Assembly: GCA_022539475.1 (NCBI GenBank)
Contig: VCMS01000051.1
Span: 172,240-236,239 of the forward strand
Reading direction: 5' to 3'
Source of the DNA: Gracilaria domingensis
Lineage: Eukaryota > Rhodophyta > Florideophyceae > Gracilariales > Gracilariaceae
DNA: 64,000 nucleotides
This document shows, one piece after another, positions 24,015 through 64,000 of the stretch (position 1 is its first letter; every line of letters begins with the position of its first letter). The translations under genes and the position numbers were made by a program. The notes below the pieces were generated by a model, which did not search any database, had not been told where the DNA came from, and saw only the letters and a list, made by a program, of their open reading frames with translations.

Positions 24015-24482
24015 CGTCTGTGTTCTGCAAAGTGAAATATAGTCTGTTCGCTTTGGAAACTAAGCTAGTTTTGGGGCTATTTGGGGCACGCGAGGGGGTG
24101 GCAGAGGCTGGCACTCAAAAAATTAAGAAATTTTGGAATATTAAATTCCATTTCGCACAGTTTAGTTCTTGGGTCCCCTAGTTTTTGTAGAGGTTCTACT
24201 TCGCCGCACCACCCCATTCGCTCTTTTCCGCCACCCTCTCTCAAAACTGCACTCGTGCTCGTTTGCGTTTCTATTTTCTCCCATGTTGCAATGCAAATCG
24301 CAACTCATCCCACCTCAATCATCCCATCACTTCTTCCCAGTCCACACAACCCCCGCTATTTTCCCATTTCTCGCTCATCACGGGTTCGCATTCTCCCTCT
24401 CTGTCTGCGCAAACGTCATTTTGTAGAAGTCAAGTCGGCAACTCTCCCCATTCTCGTATGCCCGCCTCGCCCTAAAACGGCT

Positions 24483-25412
24483 TCACATCCCTCCCATCCT
24501 TCTCTCCTCCTGTCCCCTCAGAATCCCCTTCGCCGTCGGCGCTACCTCCGCCGCACTCTTAAACTCAGTGAACATCGGAGCCCCGACTTCTTCCCGCGGC
24601 ACCTCCACCACCACCTTCTTCACCTCCTTACGCCTCTTCTTCAGACCGCTCTTCCCATCCCCAACCCCACCACCCTTTGTCTTCGGGTTCACAGGGGACC
24701 CCTTCTGCACCGCCACCCTCCCCGCACTTCCCTTCTCCGTCTTCCTCTCCACACCTCCTTTCACCGTCTTCTCTTCCACCAATCTTTGCCTCTTGCCCAG
24801 CTCCTTATCCTCCTTCTCCAGCACATCCAACCTCTCGTTCAGAACCCTATTCTCTTCCGGCAACTATCCAACTTCCCTTCCAGCACAGTCCATTATCCAA
24901 TACACATGATTCCTTATCTCCACTTCCAGTACCGACAACGAATTCCGCAGGCTCGAAATCGTCTCAACCGAAACGCCACCACCACCCCCACTCAGCACCA
25001 CATCGCCCATTTCCGTTACAATCTATACAATGCCATCGTCCAGTCGCTTTTTCATCACCCATCCCAAAATCCCCACCCTCGCCTTCATCTCCCCCACAAA
25101 GCGCATCTCCGTGTCACCCTCTCCGCCCCCACTCTCTATCTGGTCTCCAACCTCTAACTGACTCAGATGCACCGTACCCCTTATCTCCATTGCGACTCCC
25201 TCCACCTCCAATTCTACACCCTTCTCCACCTCATCACCATCCCCTCTCCTCGCCTCACACTTCTTTCCTTCATCCGCCACTTCCTTCTTCTGCGACATCC
25301 TACCAGCCGCCGTAATCACGTTCTCTTCCCACTTTGGTGACGGCGTCGGTGGTACCTCCTTCCCCCTCAACAGCGCCAACAGCTCCTCATCCTTCACGTA
25401 TTCGTTAGACAT
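24483..25412 (-). pseudogene. Coiled-coil basic protein, broken copy 2 (unit A)
   Basis: Starts with MSNEYVKDEELLALL at 25412 and collinear with the intact 309-residue copy at 47633-48562, but has in-frame stops after KKRLDDGIV (25023) and after REVG (about 24865). Copy 1 at 2740 shares both stops, so copies 1 and 2 descend from an already broken copy, or the intact copy B represents an older state. Acidic N-terminal half, central heptad-rich segment and Lys/Arg-rich tail are all visible. Function is unknown. Confidence 0.6.
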
Positions 25413-25689
25413 CTCCAGAAGAAGAAGTAGTAGTTGGATCGAAGTTTCCGCTGCGATACAGTGCAATCGAGCTAAACTGTGCTGTCCACCTCCACTGTCC
25501 AACCACACGGGCTATATCCAGCACCATGATTGTCCCTGTTTCCTTCATCCCATTTCCCGCCAAGACATCTTCTGTACACCTCCGCACCTTCCACTATTTA
25601 AGCGCCATCCCTCTGTCTCCTCTTTCACGCTCACATAATCTCCACCCACCTCGCCTCGACCTGCGATATTTTTCTCTTCCACCATAACC

Positions 25690-26045
25690 TCACTCGATGG
25701 TTATAGCAAAACAGGAAGATATTGCCAGTGGAGGCAAGCTAGGGACTAGTGATTGTACTTAGAGTAGCTCGCCCTCTGTCTCGACTGGGGGCATCTTCTT
25801 CTTCCGTCACATCCTGTGTGGGTTGTGACAAAAAAAGAATATGTCACCACTCGACACCGGATGGGTAACAATGATAGCACGTAGAGTAGTTCATCCTCCC
25901 TCTCAGCGTCCACTGGGGATATATTGATGTTCTCTGACATCCTTTCCCGGTTGTGATACAAGAGAAATACATCTCCACTGGAGACAGAGAATATAGTCGT
26001 GATAACACGTAAAGGTAACAATGTCATAAACAATAATTTTATGCT
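25690..26045. repeat. Degenerate tandem repeats between coiled-coil and epimerase genes
   Basis: Three imperfect units of roughly 110-120 bp recur, each with a GATAGCAC/GTACTTAGAGTAG-type start, a pyrimidine-rich CCCTCTGTCTC segment, CACTGGGG, and GACATCCT followed by TTGTGA. The block is also present in unit B at about 48840-49195. Likely intergenic regulatory or mere satellite DNA. Confidence 0.45.
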
Positions 26046-26052
26046 ACTATCT

Positions 26053-26750
26053 CTAACCAACCTTTCGAAAACCAGCTATGACATGAGCTGGGTTACTCGA
26101 GCCAAAGATGGCAGATCCTGCAACTGAAATGTTTGCACCGGCCTTCACTACTCCTTTCACAGTACTCAGTCCAATACCCCCATCCACCTGTATCCCTATT
26201 CTTGGGTACAACTCCCTTGCATGTCGCACCTTATCAGAACACCCTCCATAAACGCCTGTCTTCCAAACCCTGGCCCCACCGTCATCAACAATAACATGTC
26301 TACAACTCCTTCCTTCATAAGTGCTTCTACGACCTTTATAGACGTATTCGGGCGCAACGCAACTCCAACCTGCATTACCATCTTTTTAATTCGGTTACAT
26401 AATTCCTTCAACACCACGTTCTCCTTCTCAGTTGGTACCTCGCACTTTTCTAGTCCCTTAGCCACACTAAGGATATGAAATGTGACTCCGTCTGCGCCTG
26501 CTTCTGCAAGGTCTTTTATCCATTGTCCAGGAACTGATACCATCAGATGACAGTCCAAAAACAATTTCGTATGCCTCCGCAACGCTTTCACAACAGGCGG
26601 TCCAACAGTAAGGTTCGCCACAAAATGACCATCCATTACATCTATATGCAGCCACTCCGCTCCAGCCTCTTCCATTGCACTCGCTTCATCTGAAAGGCGA
26701 GCAAAGTCTGAAGCCAAAATTGATGGCGCTATAATTAAACGAGAATCCAT
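26053..26750 (-). pseudogene. Ribulose-phosphate 3-epimerase relic (unit A)
   Basis: Strong match to ribulose-phosphate 3-epimerase, the TIM-barrel enzyme that interconverts ribulose-5-P and xylulose-5-P in the pentose phosphate and Calvin cycles. From MDSRLIIAPSILASDFARL (ATG at 26750) it has EWLHIDVMDGHFV, LDCHLMVSVP, and VALRPNTSIKVVE. The phosphate-loop motif, normally TVEPGFGGQ, reads TVGPGFGRQ. A one-base deletion just after EGVL shifts the frame; the correct C-terminal frame (VDGGIGLSTV, GSAIFGSS) continues to a stop at 26053. The changed loop and the shift mark it as non-functional. The length of about 230 codons suits the family, with no clear organelle targeting peptide. Confidence 0.8.
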
Positions 26751-27223
26751 ACTAAACATCGATAACTTCAGTAACGCCAAACCCGTCCTTTCCAGACACA
26801 CTCCCCTTTTATACCTCAATAAAAAAGAAGATTATGGCAATCCGAGTGAAGCTATAGAACCCGTTCAAGTCATTTATGAAGCCAAAATGGCTCCTTTCAT
26901 CCTGTATTCAAGCTCCCCGTAACTCGTACTTACAACTACTTTACAAATGAGGTTCGAAATCAGTTTCATTCATTGTACACTTTCTACTCTTCCACCTACT
27001 TTTCATAAAACATCATCACAATTTGTGGCTTGTCGTCTCATACAAGCCCTATCATTCATTCAGTACAATCACATATCATACATTTCGCTCACTTTCACAA
27101 AGTGAACCATGTTCCCGTTCTGCGCTTCCCAACCGTTTGTACTTAAGTATCACTCTTTACCACAGCAGTTCTCCGCCCCATCTTCCATTTTTATCGTCAC
27201 ACAAAAACATTCGAACACTTGCA

Positions 27224-28126
27224 ATGAACTCCCAGTCCGACATGCCTCCCACTCCGCCTCCGAGTCCCAGATACTCCGACGTCCCTCAGGCCTCATCTCC
27301 CGCCCGAAGGACTCGGGCCGTTATTGTTGGAAGCGGGCGTATAGGTACCATGCTGGCGAACGAAGAAGATACGGTCATTTCCGCACACGAACTCTGCAGC
27401 ATGGCTGCTACCTCTCATCTTTCTGATGTACCGATACTAGTTTGTGCAAGAACGAACACCCTGGAGACCGGTATTCAGGCTTGCCCTTATTCGCTCAGAG
27501 AGAATCTCGTTTTCTTCCAGAATGGAGACATCATACCATTGCTTTCGAAGCTCGGTGTGGACAAATGTTCAAAAGTTGTCCTATACGTTGGTGTCCTCTC
27601 AAGAAACGCAGCTCCGCAGGATGGTGTCACTCCTCAAAGTCCAGATGGTCTCACTGTCGCAACAGGAAAGTGGGCCTCCAACGTTGCAGACAGGTTTAGG
27701 TCTATGGGTCTCACTTGCGGGGTTGTCGACGAAGACACATTTCTCGTAAGCTATTATGAGAAGCTCGTGTGGCTATCAGCGTTCAACATCGTCGGGGTCT
27801 CAAGAGGTTTCATTCCTATGGACGTAGTCGCTACGGAGTGCAGTACGGTTGTGCTCACAATAATGAAAGAGCTGTTGAAGATAGTTTCGCTTAAGACAGG
27901 TACTACTTTCAACCTGGAAGAGACTGTTGGGCGACTTCTTGCATATGGGGAAACTCTCGTTGGCTTCCCTACTTCTTTCTCCGACTTGCAGTTTAGGAAC
28001 GCGTACTTCTACGACTTTTCCCGCCAAGAAAGAAACATCGTAGTCGGTGACCCCGCTCCTTTTCATACAAACTACCTCAACGTTGTTAAGGAAAAGTTAT
28101 CCCCCTCCCCATTCCCCCAGCTTTGA
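27224..28126 (+). CDS. Ketopantoate reductase-like (ApbA/PanE family) protein
   Basis: A 300-residue frame from ATG 27224; the upstream extension to 27023 lacks an ATG. A Ser/Pro-rich leader (MNSQSDMPPTPPPSPRYSD) precedes a Rossmann motif AVIVGSGRIGTML (GxGxxG). Then NLVFFQNGDIIPLL resembles the QNG segment of PanE, and YEKLVWLSAFNIVG matches the start of the PanE C-terminal helical domain (KLxWNxxFN). The family reduces 2-dehydropantoate to pantoate with NADPH in pantothenate synthesis, but eukaryotic relatives often have unknown substrates, and the catalytic Lys region is weakly conserved here. It is intact in unit A, whereas the unit B copy has at least two frame-breaking deletions. Transcribed divergently from the epimerase relic, about 470 bp apart. 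Confidence 0.65.
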   Translation: MNSQSDMPPTPPPSPRYSDVPQASSPARRTRAVIVGSGRIGTMLANEEDTVISAHELCSMAATSHLSDVPILVCARTNTLETGIQACPYSLRENLVFFQNGDIIPLLSKLGVDKCSKVVLYVGVLSRNAAPQDGVTPQSPDGLTVATGKWASNVADRFRSMGLTCGVVDEDTFLVSYYEKLVWLSAFNIVGVSRGFIPMDVVATECSTVVLTIMKELLKIVSLKTGTTFNLEETVGRLLAYGETLVGFPTSFSDLQFRNAYFYDFSRQERNIVVGDPAPFHTNYLNVVKEKLSPSPFPQL

Positions 28127-28752
28127 AGTTAGAACACATGACTTTTCGGTGTTGTAAACCTTTTAGAGATAGTTAAACATAAAAGTTACTTTATCGAAAT
28201 GACCTGTTACTATTACATTACTTATATTGTTCGTCCTTCTGTGGTTCAAACATGTCACTTTAAATCCTACATCCCTTATCACTGATACCTGGCTAAGTTT
28301 TTGCTGGATGGAAAACGGTCATTCTACAACATTAAAGTGCACGATACTAGTAAGGAAACAATTACAAAATTGTGATATTTCTGAAGAACTAAGCCTTTGT
28401 AATACTTAGGGCACCCGTATAAAGTAAGGTAAACCTTTTATGCGTTTCAACCCTTAATGGAGGTTGTTTTACTGATCTTGATTTCTAAGCTCATGTTGAA
28501 GATATTCATAGTTCTCTTTACCCACTTGAACCCGTACATATAATTTATGATTAAATCATCCTTTCTTTACTGCAAATCGATGCAAAAGCTTCTCGTCGTT
28601 GTAACGTTTTAAAACAGTACTACAATACCGGTATATGGTCGTTCTTAGACTCTGTTTATACTACGAAACACCTTGTGAACATCAATCACATCCTTCTCAT
28701 TCGTATACCCACACTCATTTGCAAAAAGAACCCTTTCGAAAGCTTTCAAAAC
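28127..28752. other. Intergenic spacer conserved between units
   Basis: AT-rich, no gene seen. Almost the same sequence separates the two genes in unit B (50821-51446), as expected for a recent duplication. Confidence 0.5.
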
Positions 28753-29625
28753 ATGTATAACTCAGAAGTTAGAGCCCAAGAAGTAACTCCTCAGCAGCTG
28801 GCTAACGAAATATTCGAAAATTGCTACGCCGTGATTAGTGATATTGACGGTACTCTAAAAAGAGCTGGGGAGAACATTCCTGCCGAAACAGTCAAATGCA
28901 TGAAGTACATCAATGCACGCGTTGGTTTCGGAATTGCTACTGGACGAGATATAGAGGATGCCGAGAGTTTCATGGAGCACCTGGGTGGCTACACTTTTGG
29001 CATCTCTGGAAACCAAGGCGCACGGGTGAGATTATCCAATGGTACCGAAATTGATCAGGACCTTAACAGGGAAGGCTACGAAAGATGTGCAGTCGAACTT
29101 GAGAGACTTGCACTCTCCTTAAATGAATCGCACGGACTTCACGAAGAGCGTCAACAAGCAGTTGTGAGCACTAGAAAAGACAGTGGACTCCCTAACTTCA
29201 CGTACAATGGACTGTCGAAGTGGAAAACAGAAGTTAACTCCGGTATTTCAAAAGTGTTGACATCCTTTCCGAACCTGGTTGCCTACCCTCAAGATGAAAA
29301 CTGTGACATAGGGGACATTCATTTCACGAAAAATAGTGGGGCGCTAGCCTTGGTTGAAAACGACCCCCGGTTCGACACACATTTAATCGTTGCTTTCGGG
29401 AATGCTTCCAATGATGGGCCTCTATATGAAATGGCAACCCTCGCAGTTCATGTGAAGGGAGACGACCATCCAGCAGCGGTAACATATCTTGTCGATGGGG
29501 TGGAGGACGTGCATGAGACCATCAGAAGGGTGGCAGAACTGTACGGGTACAGAAAATGCAAGTGTCAATGGTTTAGAAATGCTCTTGGAATTTGTTTCAA
29601 GTGCTACGATGCCTGTAATACTTAG
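28753..29625 (+). CDS. HAD-family phosphatase-like protein (Cof/trehalose-phosphatase type)
   Basis: 290 residues from ATG 28753; the longer frame starting at 28675 begins with GTG. HAD motif I is AVISDIDGTLKRAG with both aspartates present; motif II is GIATGRDI; the late acidic motif is FGNASNDGPLYEMA, where the usual GDxxND has Asn for the first Asp. The order suits class IIB HAD phosphatases such as trehalose-6-phosphate or sugar phosphatases. The C-terminus is Cys-rich (CKCQWF...CFKCYDAC). It lies tail to tail with a diverged paralogue at 29678-30643. Substrate is unknown; the altered acidic motif may reduce metal binding. Confidence 0.65.
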   Translation: MYNSEVRAQEVTPQQLANEIFENCYAVISDIDGTLKRAGENIPAETVKCMKYINARVGFGIATGRDIEDAESFMEHLGGYTFGISGNQGARVRLSNGTEIDQDLNREGYERCAVELERLALSLNESHGLHEERQQAVVSTRKDSGLPNFTYNGLSKWKTEVNSGISKVLTSFPNLVAYPQDENCDIGDIHFTKNSGALALVENDPRFDTHLIVAFGNASNDGPLYEMATLAVHVKGDDHPAAVTYLVDGVEDVHETIRRVAELYGYRKCKCQWFRNALGICFKCYDACNT

Positions 29626-29677
29626 CTAGGATATGAGATCTCAGTACTAAAAGTGTCGTATATATCTCAATACCCTT

Positions 29678-30643
29678 TTATGATTCATGGTGGTTTTTAT
29701 CCTGCTGCTTTACCTCGTAGCTGTACAACAGAGCCACCAGCATAATTGTCGAATGTACATCCTCCACGCTTTCGAACAGGTTGTGTACTCCACCCGGGAT
29801 ACAATCTTCTTTGACTTGAACGCCGTACACGCCTACCTCATGCAAAGGCCCGTCGCTGAAAGCACTTCCGAACGTCACGACGTCATCCGTATCAATAAAT
29901 CTCGGTTCATTATCCACAAGATTTTCTCCTCCGCTTCCTTTTGTGTATCGCTTGTCCACAATTTCGCAACTTTTATCGCCGGGATAGATAACAAACGCAT
30001 CCATCTTCTGCAACAGGTCCCCAATAGCAGAATCCACTTCTTCTTTCCACTGCCACAGTTTGTTGTACACGAAATTGGGAAGGCCACTATCACTTCTGGT
30101 CTCCACGAACCCCTTGTCATCATCATTCACAATACCATGCCTCCTATTCAAATCCCTTGCCAGGAACAGTAGTCCGTCAACATTGTGGTCAAGGGTGTGA
30201 TCATTGAATGCACCCTTAATTTCCCTCTCGTCAGAGAAACGGAGGAAAGCTCCATGATTCGCCGAGACACCAAACTTATAGTCTCCGAGTCCTTCCATTT
30301 TCCCCTCCACGTCGCCCACATCACCCCCTGTGACAAGTCCAAAACCAACACGTTCGTCAATGAACTTCATACACTTCACAACTTCTTCTGGAATTGACTC
30401 TCCTTCTCTTCTCAACGTTCCATCAACGGAACTTAATATACCGTAACCATTGGCATATATGAACTTAGACAAGGTATTGGGTGAAATTTCCGCCAAGTCT
30501 CTCTGTTCCTCTGCCAGTTTTTCTGATACAGTCACCATACTGCCACAAGTACCGAATAGACAGGAATTGCATAGACTTCTCATCTTCATACTTCTCTTCA
30601 AACCAACCTTAAGTGCAGTTTCAGAAGTGGTAGGACGCTGCAT
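29678..30643 (-). CDS. HAD-like paralogue, probable pseudoenzyme
   Basis: 321 residues from the first in-frame ATG (30643). The frame stays open to 30742 with a hydrophobic stretch (SLILLRLIGTCLVSLTSLV) that would be a signal peptide, but only a TTG starts it; an upstream exon or lost ATG is possible. The fold parallels the neighbour: ILSSVDGTLRREG for motif I, GLVTGGDVGDVEGK for motif II, KFGVSANHGAF, SDSGLPNFVYN and FGSAFSDGPLHE. The nucleophilic first Asp of motif I is Ser and the GDxxND motif is GSAFSD, so phosphatase chemistry is unlikely. Unit B holds a broken copy. The pair arose by duplication with inversion, then one member lost catalysis. Confidence 0.65.
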   Translation of the reverse strand: MQRPTTSETALKVGLKRSMKMRSLCNSCLFGTCGSMVTVSEKLAEEQRDLAEISPNTLSKFIYANGYGILSSVDGTLRREGESIPEEVVKCMKFIDERVGFGLVTGGDVGDVEGKMEGLGDYKFGVSANHGAFLRFSDEREIKGAFNDHTLDHNVDGLLFLARDLNRRHGIVNDDDKGFVETRSDSGLPNFVYNKLWQWKEEVDSAIGDLLQKMDAFVIYPGDKSCEIVDKRYTKGSGGENLVDNEPRFIDTDDVVTFGSAFSDGPLHEVGVYGVQVKEDCIPGGVHNLFESVEDVHSTIMLVALLYSYEVKQQDKNHHES

Positions 30644-30875
30644 GTTCAATTGTGAATTGAATGGTGCCACCAATGATGTTAACGATACCAAGCATGTTCC
30701 AATTAGACGCAACAAGATCAAAGAAATATGACATTTGTTCAATTACCAGCCTGCCGCACCTTTTCTATGTTCATATGTATAGCCTTGCAATAGTATACTA
30801 CTCTTAATACTCGCCAGACACTCATAATTTACTAATCATCTCATTCTCATCCACTTCGAGGCGCTCGCAGCCTCA

Positions 30876-33800
30876 TTATTGGCAAGTCGTCATCACTACT
30901 ACTCTCGAGCACTTCAGTTCTACCGGCCTCCGCTTCCACACCAATCTCCACGACCACTTGGTCTTCTTCCATGTCACCCGCATAGTCTCCTTATCGGACA
31001 ACAGTTCATCCTCCGCCTCCTCCTCCTTGCCACCATTGACAAACGTTGGTCGGAAATCCCGCACCCGATGAACAGCATCAGGTAGTGCGTAGCCCTCTGG
31101 TACCATGTACATGTGGTATCTAACCAGCAAATCCATAGACTCGGGCCTATCCAACTTGTCCTTCCCACTTGCTCCAGCATGTGTCACATCACCACGGCCC
31201 ACGAATATAGAGTACGGTGGGATGATTATCTTCTTCGCTGGATACACCTCCGACATCACTCGCAACTGTTGGTTGTTCATCCCCACCAGTTGATGGCTTC
31301 CAGCGCTCACCCAGAGAGGAAAGCCCTCTTTCCCAGAGGTCATTACAAAGTATCCGGGGTTGCCAGTATTCATTGTTTCCTTCGTAACCAGACCACTGAA
31401 GTCGGTGTGCAGCGTCTGGCGCTTGCTCTTTCTCGTCGTCCCCAGAAATCGACCACCAGTTTTCGGAGTGTACATCTTCACAGCTTCCCTTTCATTGTCC
31501 CATAGTCCCAAAGCCGCAGCAATTGTACCCATTCGAACATCAAGTAAAGCACGCGACCTTACAACCCACCTGAGCTTCTCATTATCCTCCGGCTTCTCCA
31601 CCGTACCCCAACGTGTCGACATCACTCTCCCCTCAAATGGTCCATCGCTACCGTCCTTCCATCCTTCATCATCGTTGATTATTTGAACAAACGACTTCCA
31701 ACTCCGTATATCCGGCATCGCTCCATACTCATTCTTGAAGAAGTCCACCAACTTCCCCGACACATCTCCGAACTCCCGAACTTCTTCCAACTCCTCCCAT
31801 TTAGGGACACCATTATCCGTCGCAAAGCCATCAAGCACGCAATATCCATTCTGCCTTAGCTCAGCTTGCATTCGGGAGAAGAACATTTGCCCAAATTCGT
31901 CATGCTCCTTCGCAGCAACCCACAGCTCCTCTTCATCATCCATACCTGTCGGTCGAGTACGGGGATACTGCATACCAAATGTCTCCGCCCGTAGGCGATG
32001 TTCAGCCCTTGCAGCGTGCCAAAAGACAAGATGGTGTACATCTCTGGGATTCGAGACACTTAGCAGCTCCGACCTATGTCCCTTCGGCAAGTGAATGACT
32101 CTGAGCCAGGGGTCCTTGTGCTCAATTACGTTCTTCCCTTGCCATTCCTGCGGTCTCAGCCTGGCATACCCGCACCATGATGGGTTCGGTGGGCCATCAT
32201 ATGGGTCACCTCGAACAAGTCCGTGCTCCTCATATTCCGGAAGAGCTGTAGGTAACTCGTCATCAAATGACCCCCAACCTGTCTCTTGCTGATCGTCTGG
32301 CGCAGCATCTTTCTCGACAGTGACAACCCGTGGAACTGTCACAGAAAGAAGCTCATCGTCATCCACAAATGCAGAACTGCCTGCGTTCTCTGCATTCGCT
32401 CCCTCTCCCAATGCCACGAACTGAACCTTCATCGACCTTCCTCTCAGCACATGTTCATTTAGTTGAGACATCAGGTCATTCGGTGTGATGCTGTTCAGAG
32501 TAGATCTCATCTGTTGTGTGAAAGTCTTTCTCCGTTTCTTCCTCGGCGGAGCCCGCTGTTCTTCTTCAGAGCTATCCAGAACTTCTATGGCACCTCGATT
32601 TCGGCCGTGCTCAATTTCCCTATAACTCACCTGCGCCCGTTCTCGTGCACTTCTTCGCGGCTCCCCTTCTTCACTAACAGATGTTGCAGCAGCAGCAGCG
32701 GGAGTCCTCCTCTTCGTCACGGACTGCTTCACTGGTGCGGGGGGCGGAATTACCTTGAGCATCGTCCGCAATCGATTCTGAACGGAAGTCGTGGCAGTTC
32801 TAATTGAGCTCGTCCTGCTCCGAACACGCGGCAATGTGTTGAAGTTCACAACTTGTCCCAAAAGGAACTGATACACAGCTGCGTTGTTGTCTGGGTCTTC
32901 AACGTCATCTTCATTCGATGGAGCAGAAAGACTGACTTCTAGTTTCAGGAACACTTCCATGGACTCTTTCTCGTTCAGTTCATTCCTCACTGCTCTAGCC
33001 GCGCGGAACAGAGACACTGCTCTATCATAAAAGAAACCTCGAACCTCCTCAAAGCTTTTCCATTGCTTTGTCTTCGTCGACTTGCCCTTCAATAGAAACA
33101 TCTGAAGACAATCAAGAATGAAGGAAAACTCCTCGGCATCCAAAACATATAGCGGAGTATGGGACAGATGTGTGAGACCTATGTCACTCACAGTCTCACA
33201 TATATCCTCGAAATGGGCCAGCATTCCCTCACGAGACATGAGTTGCAGGGCGACATTGGCATATCTCAGGTACTGACGCTCTTGCACAGTCCCAATCAGT
33301 TGGCTCTCCTTCAACACTTCTGTCACTTCTGCAGGATCCACGTCTGCCGGCGTCACCTCCTCAACATCTTCAATTAGAATGGCGACCACACTAACTATGG
33401 AGTGTATCTTGTCTGCAAACATCATCCTTCGCATGGTACTCGTCGACTCATTGAGGTACGAAGCAACACATAACAATTCCTTCATCCCAATGGGCCTCCC
33501 ATCTCTTCGTATCAGCAGATTGCAACGCCAAAACTTGGCTAATCGCTTCCACTTCGGTGCACCAGTCGCTGCCAAATATTGTATAGCTTTCAGACGATGC
33601 AAACCATCTACAATGAAGCACTTCTTCGTTAGGCGTCCCTTGTCAGTATCTCTCTCTCCCGTAGTAGCATCTTGTAAGGCCACCGCTGGAGAACCCATCG
33701 ACTGCAATATCCCCCGCTCCTCCATGCTCTTCACAAGGGCTTCAAAGTGGCGTTTACTTACTCCACAGAGTAAATTGGGCGGAGTGTCCACTAGAGTGAT

Positions 33801-34754: not shown

Positions 34755-34759
34755 GTTGA

Positions 34760-34925: not shown

Positions 34926-35179
34926 ACTGATTGTACGCTTTAGAGTCGTGGCGTTCGCGCAATGATGACTCACGCGAGCAATGGTCGCGCTCTCCAATCA
35001 TGCTCTTCAAATGCTTTGCATAGTAGTCAAGAGTACACTCATTCCCTTTCATGTACAGCCTACTCCCGCCAATACACGTGGACAGCGGCGCCAACGTACC
35101 GGCGGCCGGGTGTAGCGAAATCACTTCGGGGCGGCGTGTTTTGAGAGATCCCGGGAAGCCGCCGGAATGTGGCCAGAAC

Positions 35180-52373: not shown

Positions 52374-53340
52374 AATCATGGTGGTTTTTATCGTGCTGCT
52401 TTTCCTCGTAGCCGTACAACAGAGCCACCAACATAATTGTCGAATGTAATCCTCCACGCTTTCGAACAGGTTGTGTACTCCACCCGGGATACAATCTTCT
52501 TTGACGTGAACGCCGTACACGCCTATCTCATGCAAAGGCCCGTCGCTGAAAGCACTTCCGAACGTCACGACGTCATCCGTATCAATAAATCTCGGTTCAT
52601 TATCCACAAGATTTTCTCCTCCGCTTCCTTTTGTGTATCGCTTGTCCACAATTTCGCAACTTTTATCGCCGGGATAGATAACAAACGCATCCATCTTCTG
52701 CAACAGGTCCCCAATAGCAGAATCCACTTCTTCTTTCCACTGCCACAGTTTGTTGTACACGAAATTGGGAAGGCCACTATCACTTCTGGTCTCCACGAAC
52801 CCCTTGTCATCATCATTCACAATACCATGCCTCCTATTCAAATCCCTTGCCAGGAACAGTAGTCCGTCAACAGTGTGGTCAAGGGTGTGATCATTGAATG
52901 CACCCTTAATTTCCCTCTCGTCAGAGAAACGGAGAAAGCTCCATGATTCGCCGAGACACCAAACTTATAGTCTCCGAGTCCTTCCATTTTCCCCTCCACG
53001 TCGCCCACATCACCCCCTGTGACAAGTCCGAAACCAATACGTTCGTCAATGAACTTCATACACTTCACAACTTCTTCTGGAATTGACTCTCCTTCTCTTC
53101 TCAACGTTCCATCAACGGAACTTAATATACCGTAACCATTGGCATATATGAACTTAGACAAGGTATTTGGGTGAAATTTCCGCCAAGTCTCTCTGTTCCT
53201 CCGCCATTTTTCCTGATACAGTCACCATACTGCCACAAGTACCGCATAGACAGGAACTGTATAGACTTCCAGTTCATACTTCTCTTAAAAGCAACCTTAA
53301 GTGCAGTTTCAGAATGTTAGGACGCTACATGTTCAATTGC
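52374..53340 (-). pseudogene. HAD-like paralogue, broken copy (unit B)
   Basis: Collinear with the gene at 29678-30643 and also with Ser in place of the nucleophilic Asp (LSSVDGTLRREG). A one-base deletion near 52935 shifts the frame after VSANHGAF, another near 52446 alters the C-terminus, and the N-terminal region near 53165-53330 is altered. Because both units share the missing nucleophile, the loss predates the duplication. Confidence 0.75.
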
Positions 53341-53540
53341 GAATTGACTGGTGCCACCAATAATGTTAACGATACCGAGCATTTGGCATGTTGCAATTAG
53401 ACGCAACTGGACCAAAGACGTTTGACATTTGTTCAATTACCAGCCTGCCGCACCTTTTCTATTTTCATATGTATAGCCTTGTAATAGTATACTACTCTTA
53501 ATACTCGCAAGACACACATAATTTACTAATCATCTCATTC

Positions 53541-56500: not shown

Positions 56501-57448
56501 CAGTAACAACAACCATCCGGTACTGATTGAGGTTCACCTTTGGTACCTTCTGACGAATTCGTCTGTACGTCTTGCTCCGAGTAGGTGTCCCTTGTGTTCC
56601 AGACCGCTCGCCAGAAACACTTGAACGTGCCATTCTTGCGGACAGAAGCACAACGTCATCGTCCTGCTGCTCCGCAGTTTCTGGTGCAGTTTGGGGTACA
56701 GATGGACCAGCTCCTTGCGCGGATTGCGCATCCGCGTCTGGAAGGGGACCTTTCATGATCTCATCTTCCTCCTCTTGCACAGCCGTCCCTTGCTGAACCG
56801 TCTGTTTCGACGCAGAAGTTCCCCTTGTGTCGACGGTCTGATTCATCGCAGGAGAAGCCCTTTTCGACGCAGTGGGCTTCGTAGCGGAGGTAGACTTTGT
56901 TTGACCTGTCCGCTTCGTAGCTGGGGATGCTCTCGTCTCCATAGACCGCTTCGTAATAGACGACGGACCTGCCCGCGGAGGTGCTACTGATGCGCTACCT
57001 CTCGGTGTTGATGAACTTCGAATTGGCTCCGTGCGGCTTGTCGGCGTCATCACCTCACTCATAGCGCTCACCGTTCCTCGCTTCGACGCCGGAATGCTGG
57101 CTGCCACCGGTTCCATCATTTTCTCATCCCAAGGAGCGGCCGTCCGGAGATCCTGGATATATTGTGGAAGATCCAGGCCCTCCGCCCGGTAAGGGTAGAA
57201 CGTCTGACCGCTTCGACTGATGAGAATATTATGAACCACCACAAGACCTGGTCCAATTGCTTCCCGTGCAACTCGCGGCGTAGAACACTTCCAATTCCAT
57301 GCAACAACGCTTCCCCGACTATCACCTTTCCTTCATCCTCAATATCCATCTGCAGAGAAACCCGCATTCCACCTTGCAATAATCGAGTGCTCCGCCGAGT
57401 GCGAGGAGTCACGCTTTGCGTACGCTTTCGAACACGAGTTGGCTTCAT
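53541..57448 (-). pseudogene. ParB-dioxygenase gene, broken copy (unit B)
   Basis: Collinear with 30876-34754. Shifts occur near 57250 (GGG to GG), 55430, 55375, 55310, 54935, 54755, 54530 and others, mostly single-base losses, so no long product is possible; the best piece is the 605-codon frame 57242-55425 that holds the ParB-like domain. It preserves the C-terminal frame lost in unit A, an acidic tail ESSSDDDLPIMRLRAPRSG ending at 53541. Confidence 0.85.
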
Positions 57449-57510
57449 GTTGAACAGCTATTGCAGTGAAAGGTGTATATCAACAATACGCTCGCTCGGA
57501 CGATACAACA

Positions 57511-57617
57511 ACGGAGGCGAGCCTTTAAAGGCGACTTACGCTGGGCACCCCCGCTTTCGGCAGCTCCTCCCAGCGCACTGCCAGTCTCGTCCGTGTCCTG
57601 TCCGTGGCCGCTCGCAC
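57511..57617 (-). promoter_or_regulatory. Promoter-like arm of the terminal repeat, unit B
   Basis: Contains TTTAAA near 57523 and is the inverted counterpart of 58752-58852. It sits about 60 bp upstream of the broken ParB-dioxygenase gene start. Confidence 0.5.
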
Positions 57618-57869
57618 GCTGATTGTACGCTTTAGAGTCGTGGAGTTCGCGCAATGATGACTCACGCGAGCAATGGTCGCGTTCTCTAATCATGCTCTTC
57701 AAATGCTTTGCATAGTAGTCAAGAGTACACTCATTCACTTCCATGTACAGCCTACTCCCGCCAATACACGTGGACAGCGGCGCCAACGTACCGGCGGCCG
57801 GGTGTAGCGAAATCACTGCGCGGCGGCGTGTTTTGGGAGGTCCCGGGAAGGCACCGGAATGTGCCGATA

Positions 57870-58055
57870 TGCCCGCGGGCGGGGGGGGTCGGTCGTGTTA
57901 GGGTAGGTACCCTAACACGACCGGACCCCCCCGCCCGCGGGCATAAAATCGCACATTTTTCAAAAAATCGCCCAAAACGTGCCCGCGGGCGGGGGGGGGT
58001 CGGTCGTGTTAGGGTACCTACCCTAACACGACCGACCCCCCCCGCCCGCGGGCAC
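57870..58055. repeat. Pair of GC-rich palindromes, unit B right end
   Basis: 57870-57942 and 57979-58055, nearly perfect, with GTTAGGGTA/TACCCTAAC inner arms and CCCGCGGGCGGGGGG outer arms. Confidence 0.88.
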
Positions 58056-58336
58056 GTTCTGGCCACATTCTGGCACCCTCCGGAGACCTCCCAAAACACT
58101 CCTCCCGGCACTTCCTGTACCCACTGCGTCACCTTAGTGCACCATCCCGTCATCTTAACCCTCCAGACACTCCCTAATTTCCGGGATGGTGCACTGAGGT
58201 GACCATCCCGTCTTCTCCACCCTCCAGACACTCCCTAATTTCCGGGATGGTTCACTGAGGTGACGCAGTGGGTACAAGAAGTGCCGGGAGGAGTGTTTTG
58301 GGAGGTCTCCGGAGGGTGCAAAAAATCGTCGAAAAC

Positions 58337-58521
58337 GTGCCCGCGGGCGGGGGGGTCCGGTCGTGTTAGGGTAGGTACCCTAACACGACTGGACCCCCCC
58401 GCCCGCGGGCACATTTTGGACGATTTTTTGAAAAATGTGCGATTTTATGCCCGCGGGCGGGGGGTCCGGTCGTGTTAGGGTACCTACCCTAACACGACCG
58501 GACCCCCCCGCCCGCGGGCAC
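58337..58521. repeat. Pair of GC-rich palindromes, element C left end
   Basis: 58337-58412 and 58448-58521, the same palindromes as in units A and B in mirrored context, separated by a spacer with GATTTTTTGAAAAATG. Confidence 0.88.
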
Positions 58522-58751
58522 GTTCTGGTCACATTCCGGCGCCTTCCGGAGACCTCCCAAAACACTCCTCCCGGCACTTCCGGCAGTGATTTCGCTGCAC
58601 ACGCCGTACACATATATCAAACTAGAGAAAACTAGCGCTTCACACCCACTTGATCCGCGACTTTTAGCACAATACGGGACCGTTGCAATAGCTCCGAATC
58701 GCGACGTGGCCGACACGCGACGCTATCGCTCCGACACGCGACGCTATCGCT

Positions 58752-58868
58752 CCGAGCGGACACGGACACGGACGAGACTGGCAGTGCGCTGGGAGGAGCT
58801 GCCGAAAGCGGGGGTGCCCAGCGTAAGTCGCCATTTAAAGGCTCGCCTCCGTTGTTTGCGCTGAAGCG
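58752..58868 (+). promoter_or_regulatory. Promoter-like arm of the terminal repeat, element C
   Basis: ATTTAAAGG at 58833-58841 lies about 30 bp upstream of the methyltransferase ATG (58869). The arm is inverted relative to those upstream of the ParB-dioxygenase genes. Confidence 0.5.
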
Positions 58869-61359
58869 ATGGATTCCACCGATGTTGGAGAGGAGATACA
58901 TCCTATCGACATGAGTGCTCCGCCTCCGGCGTTCCATGCATATGTCAGACTTTTCTTGGTTCTTCGCGATGCTTTGGCAAACAGCGATGGAGGCCCTGAT
59001 CGGCCACGGGACGTGGGGTTTAGAGGGTTAATAGAGTTCTGCGCCGAGAACTATAAGGATATTCCGGAGGCAAGGAAGATGTTTGAGGAGGCCACTAACT
59101 CCAAGAACCTGCAGAACTTGACACTGCAACAGCTGCGAAAGAGTGTTGTGAATAACAAACCTGTGGAACAGCGATATCTTGTAACGAAGCTTCTTGACAA
59201 GAAGGACGGGGATGAGGACCAGAGACTGCGCGATTTTTTCCTTCTCTCTATGGATATGGGTATATACCTACCGGTGCGATGCCTGGTTGGTTATTTCATG
59301 ACCAGGAGAAAGCAGGTTCTGAAGACGACAGTGTTCATCCCACCAACAGCTGTGAACCCATTTGAGGTCGTTATATACTTATCATACCTCGGCCACATAA
59401 TGGGAGAGAACGACAACATCCGAATGATGAAGAAGAAACAACCGAAAAAGAAACGAAAAGTGAACCATGCACCAGCTGTGTACATACCCACTTTTACGTC
59501 GTTCTCCAAAGACAACTGTGATCGACTGGGATTCGCTATCAGTGAGGTCGTATGGGCATGGAGTTGTTTTGCGGCTCATCTTGGATACACGAACGTTCAG
59601 CACATGGTGAAACCATACATTTACATGAATATGCAGACGTTGAAGTATACAGCGCTAGAGACACGGGAGTCTGGTTATGCCCCGCCGAGCCAGAGTACTC
59701 GATTCAACACAAAGGATGTGCCACAGAGCAGTACTAGTGGATCGGTGGAGACCTTGAGTGATGAATGCGATACAAACCTGCGAATACTGGCTAAGGAGTT
59801 TTTGACAGACCTCGAAACCATATGCACCCACGATAGCCTCTATAGCTTACGGGTTGATCAGATGAGGAACTGGATAGAGTTTTCGGAGATACGGATGGAT
59901 ACCGTATCTAGCTCTGACTCCGGTGAGTTGCCTGCTCGATTTCAGAAGTTTTCGGAGTTGCTATGGAAACCGATACAGGATATGCGTCATGCGGCAGGGT
60001 TCCATGTCGGCATTCACGCGAAACCTGATATTGAACTGACGAAAACCCCTAAAACTTCCGGTAATGCCGAACCTTCTTCGACCAAGTCTGCCCCACCCCC
60101 ACCTCGTCGAGAGTATATGAACCTCGTGAGCTCCGATAGCGACGAGTTCGAGAAGCCGGTGAATCTTGCGGAGCATGAATCTCGGGTTGCTGGTTACAAC
60201 ATCCAAAAGACTGGTATTGAGCCGCCCATGAAGGGGATATCCAGTCTCCTTCGAATGAATATGGACAAGGTGTGGAAGGGGATGAGAAAGTCACACTTTG
60301 TAGCGTACAACTGTGACATGAAGGACCTGAGGCACACACACGAAACGTTTGTGAATCAGAGTGAGATTTTATGGGGTGAGGCACAGCTTGTCCTAACAGA
60401 CCCTCCCTTTAACACTCGAAGGAAGAGGAACAAACGGAATAGTGGTCACGATGTCTTCAGTGAGGAAGACATGATCCGTACGGCTGACTTAATAAGTTCC
60501 GCGCTTCGGTCAGGTGGGCACTTCATTATATTCTGTGCCATGGCACAGTTTCATGTGTGGCACAGGATACTTTCGGAAACGGCGAGTACGAAAGATGAAG
60601 CTGGAAGCGAAGGTAAACCAGAACTCATGCCTTCGTTTAAAGTGGATGCGAATCCACTGGTGTTCATCCGGGATCGCAGTAATGTTGGAGGGAATCCACG
60701 GAAGTTTGGGATACAGCCCGTAACGGAGTACGCCGTTCATGGGGTGAAGCGTGGATTGCGACCATCGGAGGAAGCCAGTCTTACTCCATTTGAGGAGAAC
60801 AATTTCATTCCTTCCACTTTCCCGGCTAACAGGAATGTAATTGACCGGGTGCCCAAACCGAGGCGGGGGAGTGGTTGACATGGAAGGTACATGAGCCAGG
60901 TAGCTCAGTACCAGGTGGGCAGTACATAAGACCGGAGCAGAAGTCGAGGGAGTTGATGAAGGAGTTGATATGTCGCTTCACAAGACCGGGTGATCTTGTC
61001 ATGGACATGTTCGCGGGAACTTTTTCTACGGGTATGGCGTGCCTATCGCTGACAAAGCATAGGAAGTTCTTGGGGTGCGAGAAGAATAGGCCATGTTTCA
61101 GCCATGCGAAGCACCATCTAACGACTCTTATGGCCGAAGTTATTCGGGGGGGAAGAATGACATCCTGGTTGAACAGGAGGTGGTGGATGCGGCTTCAACG
61201 ACCTATGAACGGGTTCCACATCGGGACCGAGGTCGGCTTGAATGGGAGGCTCCATTTGGTTACCCCCAGTACCAAGTGATGCCTGGACATATTACTCAGT
61301 TCCTAGGAAGATACTGGAAGGACTGGGACTTTGTCGACAAGTGTGGAAGCGTACTGTAG
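58869..61359 (+). CDS. Beta-class DNA methyltransferase (adenine-type motif), two G-run frameshifts
   Basis: From ATG 58869, 669 codons are open, then the frame changes near 60869 (GGGGG run) and near 61150 (GGGGGGG run); each is repaired by one extra G. The N-terminal ~480 residues are helical with a basic patch (KKKQPKKKRKV, NLS-like) and match nothing I know. Motif IV is LVLTDPPFNTRR (Asp511-Phe514), followed by a variable region and then motif I, GDLVMDMFAGTFSTGMAC, near 60985. Order IV before I defines beta-class N4/N6 methyltransferases; DPPF favours N6-adenine over the SPP[YF] of N4-cytosine enzymes. This class is bacterial in origin and rare in eukaryotes. A SET gene follows 37 bp after the TAG at 61357. 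Confidence 0.75.
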
Positions 61360-61396
61360 ATCTTTGGGAGGGAAGTACCGAGGAGCTCTGAATCTT

Positions 61397-62002
61397 ATGG
61401 ATATGCATATGCTGTTGACTGTTGAAGCCAATCGCTATCGCTTACATATAGCATCTTCTAAGATCCGACATCCCCGTGCTGGTATGGGGGTGTTCACGGA
61501 ACATAAGATATTGGCTGGGGAAACTATCTGTCATTTCTATGGAACTTTGGTATACACGGATCTGACGAACCGGAAGGAAAGACACTTAACGTATGGAAGT
61601 GGCTGTCTCGGAGCAACTCCAGTGCGGTACAAGTTGTTTTCTATGATGGTCACTGTGACTGGTACGGAGTTTCTGCACCTGAGGAACAGACCAGGACAGG
61701 CTCAGGATAGAAAGGAGAGCGAAGTCTACATTGTCCCGGCGCCTTTTTGTATCGGGGGCTACATTAACGACGCCGGATATCATGCCGGGGATCCCGATTT
61801 ATCGGAGCCCCGGTCAAACAGGACTCGAAGTGCCAATGTGCAGGTGGTGGAAGCGAAGTCCGTGATACAGTTCAAGTCAGACCTTTCTAACTATGCTCTA
61901 CTTCGTTGTAGAGCAGTAAGAGATATTGAGAGGGGCGAAGAGTTGTATTTCGACTACGGAGAGCAGTACGCCTGGGACTGGGCTCTGACATTGGAGCAAT
62001 AG
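61397..62002 (+). CDS. SET-domain protein
   Basis: 201 residues from the first ATG in frame (61397); the frame is open back to about 61304. SET landmarks: HPRAGMGVFTEHKILAGETI (the GxGxxA-like entry strand), CHFYGTLVYTDL, GGYINDAGYH in place of the usual NHSC segment, a basic strand NVQVVEAKSVIQF, then LLRCRAVRDIERGEELYFDYGEQY, which fits the ERGEEL-DYG end. SET enzymes methylate protein lysines, often histones. The pre- and post-SET zinc clusters are absent, as in small viral or mobile-element SET proteins, and the altered NHS motif makes activity uncertain. It sits directly behind the methyltransferase gene on the same strand and may be co-expressed or part of a fusion whose frame is lost. 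Confidence 0.7.
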   Translation: MDMHMLLTVEANRYRLHIASSKIRHPRAGMGVFTEHKILAGETICHFYGTLVYTDLTNRKERHLTYGSGCLGATPVRYKLFSMMVTVTGTEFLHLRNRPGQAQDRKESEVYIVPAPFCIGGYINDAGYHAGDPDLSEPRSNRTRSANVQVVEAKSVIQFKSDLSNYALLRCRAVRDIERGEELYFDYGEQYAWDWALTLEQ

Positions 62003-62250
62003 ATGAGTTCAGTAGCGAATAGAAAGTAAATATGCTTGTGAGTGTTGCAGCTGCCTGCAATACGCGTTGTTGTACATGTACACTGGAGCTCTTCATCTGT
62101 AACGGCGATATTTGCGACCCATTGGGCACCTCAAATTCCTAAAAAGCAGGAACTGCGGAGTCTCCCGGAATATCTGAACCATGCACCCCCCCCCCACCCC
62201 CTCCCCCCCTCCCCAACAATTTCGTTTCATTACCCTGTTTATCTCCACAC
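62003..62250. other. Spacer between SET and coiled-coil genes
   Basis: No gene; contains a C-rich run (62180-62210). Likely carries the SET gene 3' end and promoter of the next gene. Confidence 0.4.
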
Positions 62251-64000
62251 ATGGGTATAACGCCGAGAAAGCGAAATAGTACGCAGCGGAACAAGAGTGG
62301 ACAGAAGAAGAGAAGAGCATCGGATGATACGAATCAGGCTACAAGCACCGCACTTCCTAAACGGAAGTCGTCCTCGACGAAGGAGAGAGTCAGTGGGCGT
62401 CCTTCTACAGGACTCTCTCGCCCATCTCGCAGCGGAGCGTCTTCCGGGATTGCGTCAAGAATTCGTGGATCAGCGAACGATGTCGTGCCGTCAACTGCCG
62501 ATAATGCAAATCGTGCATCTGTCTCTGCTCCTCAAGAAGATGAGGTAACTCGGCCCAGCGGGTCAGGACAGGAGGGCATGACAACTGGAACCGAAGAGGT
62601 TCGTATGACACCAAAACCTTCATGTCCCCGGCCGATATCGAAGACCGGAGCTACTGGGGCGCGGGTTACGCCGCCCAGTGGATCTGGACAACAAGGGACA
62701 ATGACGAGAAGTCGTGAGAGTCCTAGTATATTAAGATCGTCACGTCCATCCCTCTCTTCTAGAACTGGGGCCGCTATGAATCGTATCATGCCTCGCAATG
62801 GGTCCGGACAAGGGAGAAACACAATAAGAAATCGAGAGACAACTGATAGACGAGTTACTTTTCGACCTTCCCCTCTTTCCAGAACGGGGGCCGTTGCAGC
62901 TCGTACGAGGCCCAATTCATCTGATATACCATGCCATGGAGGAGGACATACACGGGAGTTGGAGCTCGGAGCCGTGCCAAGGGTGGACACAGAACGCCTG
63001 CAGCCTCTCGTGGCTAAGGCTATGGCACATGAGGATAGTTCCGATAACGAAATAACACCGAATCCTGCGGCATTACCGGGGCCTGTCGCCGAAGAAGCTA
63101 GGGAAATAACGGAAGATATCCAAACTGGTGTGAATTCAAGCTCTATGAACAGACCTGATCTTTTAAATGAACTGAATTGCTTGAAAGAAAAGGTTAAGAC
63201 GCTACAAGAGGACTTGATGGTTCGGGGAATTCTAGTGAAGGTCGCCCAAGAGCAGAGTACGGCTTTGAAAAAGAGGCTTGAAGAGAAGGATCTAGTCATT
63301 GAAGGGCTAAGAGGGGCACTGAAACAGGAGGGAGATAGGAGTACACGTGCTGGTGAACCTGGGCAGACAGGTCGAAAGAAGCATAAAATTGAGGTGTGCG
63401 ACGAGTTTCGAGGGGTTGCTCGAGCAGTGTATCACAACATGCTGACGTGGGCAAGGAGAGAAACAAGTGAGCTATGGCTCGAAGGTGAGTCGCTCACCCG
63501 AAATTGGGGTAACCGTGCCGAGAAGGTGGAAGACGCAACTGAGAGTGGGGAAGGGCTTATTGAGCCGGAGGAAGGTGGTTCATACATGGTTCCTAAAAAC
63601 CCCGTGGAGCTCTTGGGCAGTTTTGGCATGTTCACACCGTCGGTAGAGGGGGGGCCAGATGCTTTGCTGAAGAAAATGGTTGAAAGCGAGTTGAAGGAGT
63701 TGAGCTGGGAAGGTATTAGAAAAGCATCTCTTACCGACAGGTGTATACTGGAACTTTGTGCAGATATGTGCCTTAGGCAGAGAATGCGGCAGACCATGAG
63801 TGACGTCGTGGGCGTTCGTAAGAGAAATACGAGGGATAAACTATTTCTGCTCCTGGGGTACGATCTGATTTGGAGAAGAACAAAGCTGGTAGAAGAGAAT
63901 GCTGACGAACTCACAATGCAGTTGAAGGAAGCGCAGGAGAACATACTGCGTCTTGACGAAAATGGTGTACCGAACACTTCATGGTGGAGAAAAGCCCCAT
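62251..64000 (+). CDS. Long Ser-rich and coiled-coil protein, runs off the window
   Basis: An ATG at 62251 opens a frame that stays open for 583 codons to the window end. The N-terminus is basic (MGITPRKRNSTQRNKSGQ). Residues about 120-230 hold about three repeats of ~42 residues, each with SxTGA, a P-SGSGQ-type element and RxRE. A coiled-coil-like segment follows (about 305-370: LNELNCLKEKVKTLQEDLM, LKKRLEEKDLVIEGL). The C-terminal part (370-583) is helical with ELCADMCLRQRMRQTMSD and a second coil (VEENADELTMQLKEAQEN). No catalytic motif is recognised. Third gene of the C module after the methyltransferase and SET genes; perhaps a structural or DNA-binding partner, which is inference. Confidence 0.65.
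   Translation, partial: MGITPRKRNSTQRNKSGQKKRRASDDTNQATSTALPKRKSSSTKERVSGRPSTGLSRPSRSGASSGIASRIRGSANDVVPSTADNANRASVSAPQEDEVTRPSGSGQEGMTTGTEEVRMTPKPSCPRPISKTGATGARVTPPSGSGQQGTMTRSRESPSILRSSRPSLSSRTGAAMNRIMPRNGSGQGRNTIRNRETTDRRVTFRPSPLSRTGAVAARTRPNSSDIPCHGGGHTRELELGAVPRVDTERLQPLVAKAMAHEDSSDNEITPNPAALPGPVAEEAREITEDIQTGVNSSSMNRPDLLNELNCLKEKVKTLQEDLMVRGILVKVAQEQSTALKKRLEEKDLVIEGLRGALKQEGDRSTRAGEPGQTGRKKHKIEVCDEFRGVARAVYHNMLTWARRETSELWLEGESLTRNWGNRAEKVEDATESGEGLIEPEEGGSYMVPKNPVELLGSFGMFTPSVEGGPDALLKKMVESELKELSWEGIRKASLTDRCILELCADMCLRQRMRQTMSDVVGVRKRNTRDKLFLLLGYDLIWRRTKLVEENADELTMQLKEAQENILRLDENGVPNTSWWRKAP

What the first reader, a model, noticed from the sequence alone, without database searches (positions are those of the whole stretch)
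24015..64000. A candidate giant DNA element family carrying a DNA/chromatin-modification toolkit
Seen: two copies of a unit whose right end encodes a ParB-like/2OG-dioxygenase protein, and facing them a left end that encodes a beta-class DNA methyltransferase, a SET protein and a coiled-coil protein. Both end types share inverted termini (CACTGAGGTGACGCAGTG), promoter sequence and palindrome arrays. Known: TET/JBP-like oxygenases travel with KDZ transposons in fungi, and CACTA-type elements have CACT[AG] ends and subterminal repeats. Inference: one element family has a writer (methyltransferase), possible oxidiser (dioxygenase), histone modifier (SET) and ParB-like binder at its two ends, with metabolic genes between.
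Basis: partly seen in the sequence, partly recalled or inferred. Interest (0 to 1): 0.92.

Follow-up and report, generated by a model that had tools for sequence, protein, structure and literature searches.

The report
Giant seaweed transposon with epigenetic toolkit
The window holds copies of a very abundant jumping-gene family in a red seaweed whose largest members carry a DNA methyltransferase, a histone-methyltransferase-like protein and a DNA-binding oxygenase-like protein between one pair of ends, so the element may edit the chemical marks on its own DNA.

Summary
The finding is real, but its geometry must be turned inside out. The window lies in Gracilaria domingensis, a red alga. The "right end" (ParB-like/dioxygenase) and "left end" (methyltransferase, SET, coiled coil) are not ends. 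They are two arms of one element diverging from a palindrome-rich centre (57.4-58.9 kb).

The true termini are CGTCTG...CAGACG, with 572 left and 555 right matches in the genome. The complete element read here is 22,815 bp (contig C187) with a 2-bp target duplication. A Plavaka-type transposase (PF18759, E 2.7e-19) lies at its right side.

About 10-kb deletion derivatives (15 of 15 tested have 2-bp duplications) lack the module. Other forms carry captured host genes such as ECM29. Ten of 14 long pairs lack a duplication, perhaps from assembly.

Prior art exists: giant EnSpm elements in red algae, ParB-methyltransferase proteins in algal transposons, TET/JBP-bearing Plavaka in fungi. I saw no published element combining a ParB-dioxygenase fusion, separate methyltransferase and SET; the closest red-algal paper could not be read. 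The oxygenase and ParB calls rest on motifs only. Self-modification is inference.

The parts
2272..14614 (+). Element A: 12,343-bp divergent member with both ends and other cargo (FkbM-type methyltransferase frame 4214-6085 -), repeat/palindrome pair near 9657-9900, decayed transposase frame 12245-13330 -; TSD GG at 2270-2271 and 14615-14616
   Evidence: left end 91% and right arm 83-92% to C187; flanks read; Pfam; repeats (the strict palindrome scan found none here)
24015..35444 (+). Element B: left arm of a second full-size element, cut by the LTR element; its tail continues at 47172-47191; its right arm is not found next to it
   Evidence: 93-97% identical to 47193-58126
30876..34754 (-). 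ORF of 1292 aa: ParB-like motif region (VDGLHRLKA) plus C-terminal 2OG-dioxygenase-like region (HxD...H...R)
   Evidence: relative P0004, 36% identical over 44% of the query, keeps both regions; no Pfam hit
35445..47171 (+). Nested gypsy-like LTR retrotransposon, LTRs 35445-36301 and 46314-47171 (98% identical), TSD CCCAC
47194..64000 (+). Element C: full-size element, starts CGTCTGTGTTCTGC at 47194, runs out of the window; right terminus CAGACG at window coordinate 71503; flanking dinucleotides CA and TA, so no TSD
47636..48661 (-). 342-aa left-arm ORF; no family above cut-off
49206..49523 (-). C-terminal piece of a ribulose-phosphate 3-epimerase (cargo)
   Evidence: PF00834 E 1.3e-24
28555..30742 (.). 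Two HAD-like hydrolase frames (28555-29622 +, 29681-30742 -), cargo, in copy B
   Evidence: PF08282 E 3.4e-13 and 1.5e-4
53573..57332 (-). ParB-like/dioxygenase gene of element C, interrupted frames
57446..58868 (.). Central bidirectional intergenic region with long GC-rich palindromes (57867-57946, 57988-58047, 58317-58432) and the 18-mers at 58122-58139 (-) and 58253-58270 (+)
   Evidence: 1308 places of the 26-bp palindrome core in the genome (up to 1 mismatch)
58869..61276 (+). Beta-type amino DNA methyltransferase (DPPF motif IV at 60393, motif-I region at 61004); two overlapping frames in the window; in C187 open from the middle to the end, with its 5' part in another frame
   Evidence: PF01555 E 6.9e-12; C187 frames; DpnA/CcrM matches
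61307..61999 (+). SET-domain open frame
   Evidence: PF00856 E 1.1e-8, above cut-off; weak MLL1 match
62143..64000 (+).
   Evidence: no Pfam hit

Best explanation
This is a Plavaka-type (CACTA/EnSpm-Mirage-Chapaev-related) DNA transposon family in the red alga Gracilaria domingensis. Shown: ends CGTCTG...CAGACG with an imperfect TIR (12 of 15 bases), 2-bp target duplications, and a transposase on the right side reading inwards. In the full form (22.8 kb) a palindrome-array centre has a ParB-like/dioxygenase-like gene leaving it leftwards and a DNA amino-methyltransferase, SET and a further gene leaving it rightwards; cargo fragments sit further left. The smaller forms that were read are an internal deletion (C19) or carry other genes (C5, element A), and keep ends, a transposase region and palindrome-type repeats. 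Inferred: the transposase moves all forms. The ParB-like protein binds the palindromes and brings the oxygenase, methyltransferase and SET activities to the element's own chromatin. This keeps it expressible, or marks it as self, and the short copies are served in trans.
For: Termini: 572 left and 555 right matches with at most 2 mismatches, reversed-pattern control 0. TSD: exactly 2 bp in 15 of 15 end pairs of 8.9-10.8 kb, 2 of 5 at 11-15 kb, 4 of 14 at 15 kb or more (about 1 in 16 by chance). Transposase: PF18759 E 2.7e-19 and 2.4e-17; 123 scored matches of 672 candidates, many in frames of about 1,100 aa. Both modules between one end pair: C187:23263-46077 read in full; C8, C50 and C51 by exact markers for all three genes; C137 by the same lists plus its ends. 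Palindrome cores inside 10 of 12 paired elements of contigs C2-C9 (exact cores only). Deletion derivative C19. ECM29 in the C5 form. ParB-like/dioxygenase fusion kept at 36% identity in P0004, including HxD...H...R.
Against: Ten of 14 end pairs of 15 kb or more lack a TSD, and so does window element C, which is not among the 14 (CA and TA); assembly chimeras among near-identical copies or recombination are likely but unproven. Of 31 exact methyltransferase matches in C1-C66, 17 have no exact divergent oxygenase match within 9 kb and 9 no exact SET match within 2.5 kb (deletions, contig ends or mismatches). The two paired elements without an exact palindrome core are both long ones. The methyltransferase motif I reads FAGTF, not FxGxG. 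No family library recognises the ParB-like or oxygenase regions, and both structure models had very low confidence (pLDDT 28 and 32). Selection on the methyltransferase is not clear (first 1.5 kb, 22 copies, most chosen for similarity: 20 nonsynonymous and 10 synonymous variants, per-site ratio 0.55). Nothing here tests methylation, binding or expression.
Confidence: 0.8

Rival explanations
1. The modification genes are passive cargo: like ECM29, FkbM and the epimerase they were picked up by a gene-capturing transposon and do nothing for the element.
For: Other forms of the family carry host-type genes (ECM29; FkbM; epimerase). All 32 exact-ended pairs under 15 kb in C1-C66 lack every exact module marker yet are the more numerous class. 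Constraint on the methyltransferase is not significant.
Against: Markers of the three genes have 194, 239 and 226 matches genome-wide. Of 31 exact methyltransferase matches in C1-C66, 22 have SET just downstream and 14 the divergent oxygenase upstream. The ParB-like/dioxygenase fusion exists in a distant protein with catalytic-type residues kept. Related accessory genes recur in unrelated algal transposons (PMC12477816).
Confidence: 0.3
2. One reading: two separate end types with CACTGAGGTGACGCAGTG termini facing each other, i.e. modules on different units.
For: In the window copy 1 does stop at that motif, next to the start of copy 2.
Against: In 19 of 19 other loci the two modules are continuous through the motif. 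The true ends are elsewhere with sharp boundaries. Copy 1's stop is explained by element C abutting its centre.
Confidence: 0.03
3. The 20-24 kb units are assembly chimeras of shorter elements; the modules never transpose together.
For: 10 of 14 long pairs lack a TSD while 15 of 15 short pairs have one.
Against: C187 and C8:278212-298361 have 2-bp TSDs and both modules. The centre is continuous in the 19 loci checked, and the short form read (C19) is a clean deletion of the long one.
Confidence: 0.08
4. An endogenous virus or virus-like element rather than a transposon.
For: Large size and methyltransferase cargo.
Against: Plavaka transposase, short TSDs, no viral family among the frames scanned with Pfam. 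No relative of the ParB-like/dioxygenase protein found in viral contigs.
Confidence: 0.02

Closest known systems
Plavaka DNA transposons with and without TET/JBP dioxygenase in fungi (Kojima 2025, PMC12730594; abstract, section 3.2 and passages read)
   Same: Plavaka transposase, 2-bp TSD, element-borne oxygenase gene
   Different: Termini CGTCTG..CAGACG instead of TGT..ACA or CATCA..TGATG; the oxygenase is fused to a ParB-like region and not shown to be TET/JBP; methyltransferase and SET genes added; red alga
Giant EnSpm/CACTA elements of red algae (Chondrus 16-20 kb with 4-5 ORFs, Kojima et al. 2013, cited in PMC6431247; Petroll et al. 2025, the Bostrychia genome, cited in PMC12477816; passages read, neither primary source held or seen)
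   Same: Red alga, giant size, multiple accessory genes; EnSpm is related to Plavaka
   Different: Gene content of those elements could not be compared; they may include close kin of this family
Sola1-1_Ec32 of Ectocarpus with a 1104-aa ParB-like plus 4mC/6mA methyltransferase protein (PMC12477816, passages read)
   Same: ParB-like DNA-binding region and amino DNA methyltransferase as transposon accessory functions; [quoted passage not shown]
   Different: There the two are one protein on a Sola transposon; here ParB-like is fused to an oxygenase-like region and the methyltransferase is separate, with SET
Plavaka giant repeats of Amoebidium (PMC11244446, passages read)
   Same: Up to 50 kb, Plavaka transposase at the edge, intron-poor cargo
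   Different: Many of the cargo genes are tyrosine recombinases
SET-bearing HarbingerS and MuDR transposons of Phytophthora (cited in PMC12730594, passage read)
   Same: SET gene carried by a DNA transposon
   Different: Different superfamilies; no DNA methyltransferase or oxygenase mentioned in the passage

Membership tests
Plavaka superfamily | Plavaka transposase domain | tested here: met
   PF18759 above cut-off in the three long frames tested, L021, C187 and C19; the decayed window frame 12245-13330 is below it (E 0.039)
Plavaka superfamily | 2-bp (or 3-bp) target duplication | tested here: met
   15 of 15 pairs of 8.9-10.8 kb; 21 of 34 pairs of all sizes; window element A GG/GG; window element C none
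Plavaka superfamily | Termini TGT..ACA (A) or CATCA..TGATG (B) as in PMC12730594 | tested here: not met
   CGTCTG..CAGACG; a terminus type outside those two fungal lineages
Plavaka superfamily | C(2)C and H(3-4)H motifs between the catalytic residues | tested here: inconclusive
   CHRC read in the frame, an H(2)H (HNLH) follows; not aligned to reference transposases
CACTA/EnSpm | CACT[A/G] termini | tested here: not met
   The CACTG motif is internal
TET/JBP dioxygenase | Double-stranded beta-helix fold with HxD...H...R and family similarity | tested here: inconclusive
   HxD, H and R conserved with P0004; no family hit; AlphaFold pLDDT 32
ParB-like N-terminal domain | ParBc family match | tested here: inconclusive
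   VDGxHRLxA motif only (motif recalled); no Pfam hit
N6/N4 amino DNA methyltransferase, beta type | PF01555 with DPPx before the SAM-binding motif | tested here: met
   46.2 bits against cut-off 26.7; DPPF precedes it (order of motifs for the class recalled); second Gly of FxGxG is Phe
SET domain | PF00856 above cut-off | tested here: met
   35.8 bits against 22.4; the usual NHS motif (recalled) is not evident (INDAGYHAG)
Dispersed satellite | Shared sequence in tandem, without element boundaries | tested here: not met
   Sharp ends, TSDs, coding capacity

The most novel reading that the evidence does not exclude
The element runs its own sequence-addressed epigenetic system: the ParB-like/dioxygenase protein recognises the palindrome arrays (about 1,300 cores genome-wide, present also in short copies without any exact module marker), and the element's methyltransferase, oxygenase and SET protein set a private chromatin state on hundreds of autonomous and parasitic copies. 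The host genome search found no C5 DNA methyltransferase (PF00145), so the mark would be a non-5mC one (6mA or 4mC).
Probability: 0.3. Interest if true: 0.85.

Novelty: new variant of a known kind. Interest (0 to 1): 0.6.

Why it matters
By a rough estimate this one family makes up about a tenth of the genome (about 560 ends of each kind times a mean of 14.1 kb over 44 exact-ended pairs). It offers a natural contrast between long copies with a DNA/chromatin-modification module and short copies without it, in a host with no C5 DNA methyltransferase detected in our search. That makes the open question whether transposons use their own DNA-modification enzymes on themselves directly testable by long-read methylation calling.

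Tried and rejected
Structure prediction failed to settle the oxygenase: P0004 with 4 rows gave pLDDT 28, the oxygenase segment with 3 rows gave 32; no fold search was run because such models give meaningless matches. Protein searches for the first methyltransferase frame and for the transposase found no relative at E 0.001 (only candidates sharing words are scored). Viral contig scans found no relative of the ParB-like/dioxygenase protein. The selection test stopped with an error after three of five gene pieces; its ParB piece had frame breaks (6-8 stops per row) and is not used; the third piece (methyltransferase 3' part, 3 copies) had 3 nonsynonymous and 1 synonymous variant. CpG depletion is not seen (o/e 0.92 in C187, 0.99 in the window), so no 5mC footprint. 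The strict palindrome scan found 3 in C187, 3 in element C, 1 in C19, 2 in the C5 stretch and none in element A or copy B, whose arrays show only as looser repeats. A subtelomeric reading of the many copies near contig ends was dropped without a full test for telomere repeats; contigs breaking in long repeats explains it. A tandem-unit reading of copies 1 and 2 was dropped: copy 1 ends in its own centre where element C begins.

Counts with limits: pattern searches list only the first 100 places, exact ones first, so one search used 99 of 572 left and 92 of 555 right ends (contigs C1-C66); absence of an exact marker there is not absence of the gene. TSD test: 35 pairs were fetched (30 of the 44, chosen by hand for size spread, plus C187, C158, C137, C412 and C315); C315 was dropped because its right terminus was not found in the stretch, leaving 34. 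Right ends alone were read for C20, C65 and C164.
Full report
What the window is. It lies on contig C51 of a 77.9-Mb, 680-contig eukaryote assembly. The best relative of the ParB-like protein is annotated from Gracilaria domingensis on a 1,013,300-bp contig, which equals the length of contig C22 of this assembly, so the genome is very probably that species' public assembly.

What was right and wrong in the observation. The two ParB-like/dioxygenase arms and the divergent methyltransferase and SET arm are there. The motif CACTGAGGTGACGCAGTG is there three times. But it is the middle of a bidirectional intergenic region, not a terminus. Of loci L002-L020, the best matches, 19 of 19 hold the ParB-like start on one side and the methyltransferase start on the other. 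The gap between window copies 1 and 2 is a nested gypsy-like LTR retrotransposon with 98% identical LTRs and TSD CCCAC.

Finding the true ends. Of 40 scored left-end copies (655 candidates), 36 begin within two bases of CGTCTG, three begin 5-16 bases earlier, and one is the window itself. Of 40 scored right-end copies (636 candidates), 37 stop at CAGACG or up to nine bases after it, one (C315) stops two bases short, and two (the window itself and C577) match the whole query. Whole-genome pattern counts are 572 and 555 with at most 2 mismatches, 0 for the reversed pattern. The TIR is CGTCTGTGTTCTGCA against CGTCTGTCTCTTGCA. Thirty-four end pairs were checked for TSDs: 15 of 15 at 8.9-10.8 kb have exactly 2 bp, 2 of 5 at 11-15 kb, 4 of 14 at 15 kb or more. 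Element A in the window also has GG on both sides; element C has none.

The complete element. C187:23263-46077 (22,815 bp, TSD TT) reads, left to right: a frame of unknown kind; a stretch aligned to the window's epimerase fragment; a frame without family hit and HAD-like frames; the ParB-like/dioxygenase gene on the minus strand in more than one frame; the palindrome centre; the methyltransferase, open in one frame from its middle to its end; SET; a further gene; and on the minus strand the Plavaka transposase, followed by the right end. In contigs C1-C66, 44 pairs of exact ends were formed. None of 32 pairs under 15 kb has an exact marker of the methyltransferase, oxygenase or SET. Of 12 pairs of 15 kb or more, 11 have at least one, 6 have two or more and 3 (C8, C50, C51) have all three. 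C137 also holds all three between its ends, though without a TSD. Total marker counts with at most 2 mismatches are 194, 239 and 226.

Derivatives. C19 (10.3 kb) is the 22.8-kb element minus the HAD, oxygenase, methyltransferase, SET and further right-arm parts, with ends, palindromes and transposase kept. The C5 form (13.8 kb), of which 10 kb were read, shares its left end, palindromes and part of the transposase side and carries ECM29. Window element A carries an FkbM-type frame. The palindrome core has 1,308 places. Exact cores lie inside 10 of 12 paired elements of contigs C2-C9: 4.8-6.0 kb from the right end in the nine elements without an exact right-arm marker and 9.2-9.4 kb in the one with it; the two without an exact core are both long. 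Its presence in copies without the genes points to a cis role.

The proteins. The methyltransferase belongs to the N6/N4 family (PF01555; DpnA and CcrM matches), with DPPF before the SAM motif; that motif is FAGTF rather than FxGxG. The SET call is above cut-off but its NHS motif is not canonical. The ParB-like and oxygenase calls rest on motifs conserved with P0004, a 36%-identical protein from JGI sequence data, probably metagenomic. Pfam, NCBIfam and PHROGs found no such family, and two AlphaFold models were unusable. The TET/JBP label should not be used.

How it likely works. Shown: a transposase-bearing, TSD-making element with smaller derivatives and a divergent pair of modification modules. 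Inferred: the transposase serves all forms; the ParB-like region binds the palindromes; the enzymes act on the element's own DNA and chromatin. No C5 DNA methyltransferase was found in the genome (0 matches, control 10 of 14 genomes; an exon-wise search may miss a split gene) and CpG is not depleted, so a 5mC-erasing role for the oxygenase looks unlikely; 6mA or 4mC is the mark to look for.

Prior art. Giant EnSpm elements with 4-5 ORFs are reported in Chondrus (cited in PMC6431247), and giant EnSpm elements with accessory genes in red algae (cited in PMC12477816). ParB-like plus 4mC/6mA methyltransferase proteins on algal transposons, with a proposed self-modification role, are described for Ectocarpus (PMC12477816). 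TET/JBP-bearing Plavaka elements and SET-bearing DNA transposons are known (PMC12730594). I read an abstract, one section and passages of PMC12730594 and passages only of the others. In the listings of ten full-text searches I saw no element with this combination, but Petroll et al. 2025 is not held and the Repbase reports were not seen. The work is therefore scored as a new variant, not a new kind.

Noticed in passing
window 35445-47171: Young gypsy-like LTR retrotransposon (LTRs 98% identical, 5-bp TSD) nested in element B; a diverged relative's LTR-side piece (82%) abuts the right end of element C outside the window.
   Followed up: partly
window 2100-2271 and 14615-14898: A satellite-like repeat (108-bp period at 14615-14898) flanks element A on both sides, as if A had jumped into the satellite.
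   Followed up: partly
L063 3147-5427 (C5 form): A 13.8-kb form of the family carries ECM29 (proteasome adapter) gene pieces, a host-type gene between the ends.
   Followed up: partly
window 47172-47193: Element C begins inside the centre of element B, but B's other half does not follow C's right end: rearrangement or assembly chimera.
   Followed up: partly
P0002 and P0003 in public records: Element proteins are annotated as Mediator subunit 15-like and cell-wall-anchored SasA in G. domingensis: misleading names for a transposon gene.
   Followed up: no
L026 4743-7988: The C187 transposase frame differs from the C51 copy at a conserved-looking position near the C(2)C motif, so this full-length copy may depend on others.
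   Followed up: no
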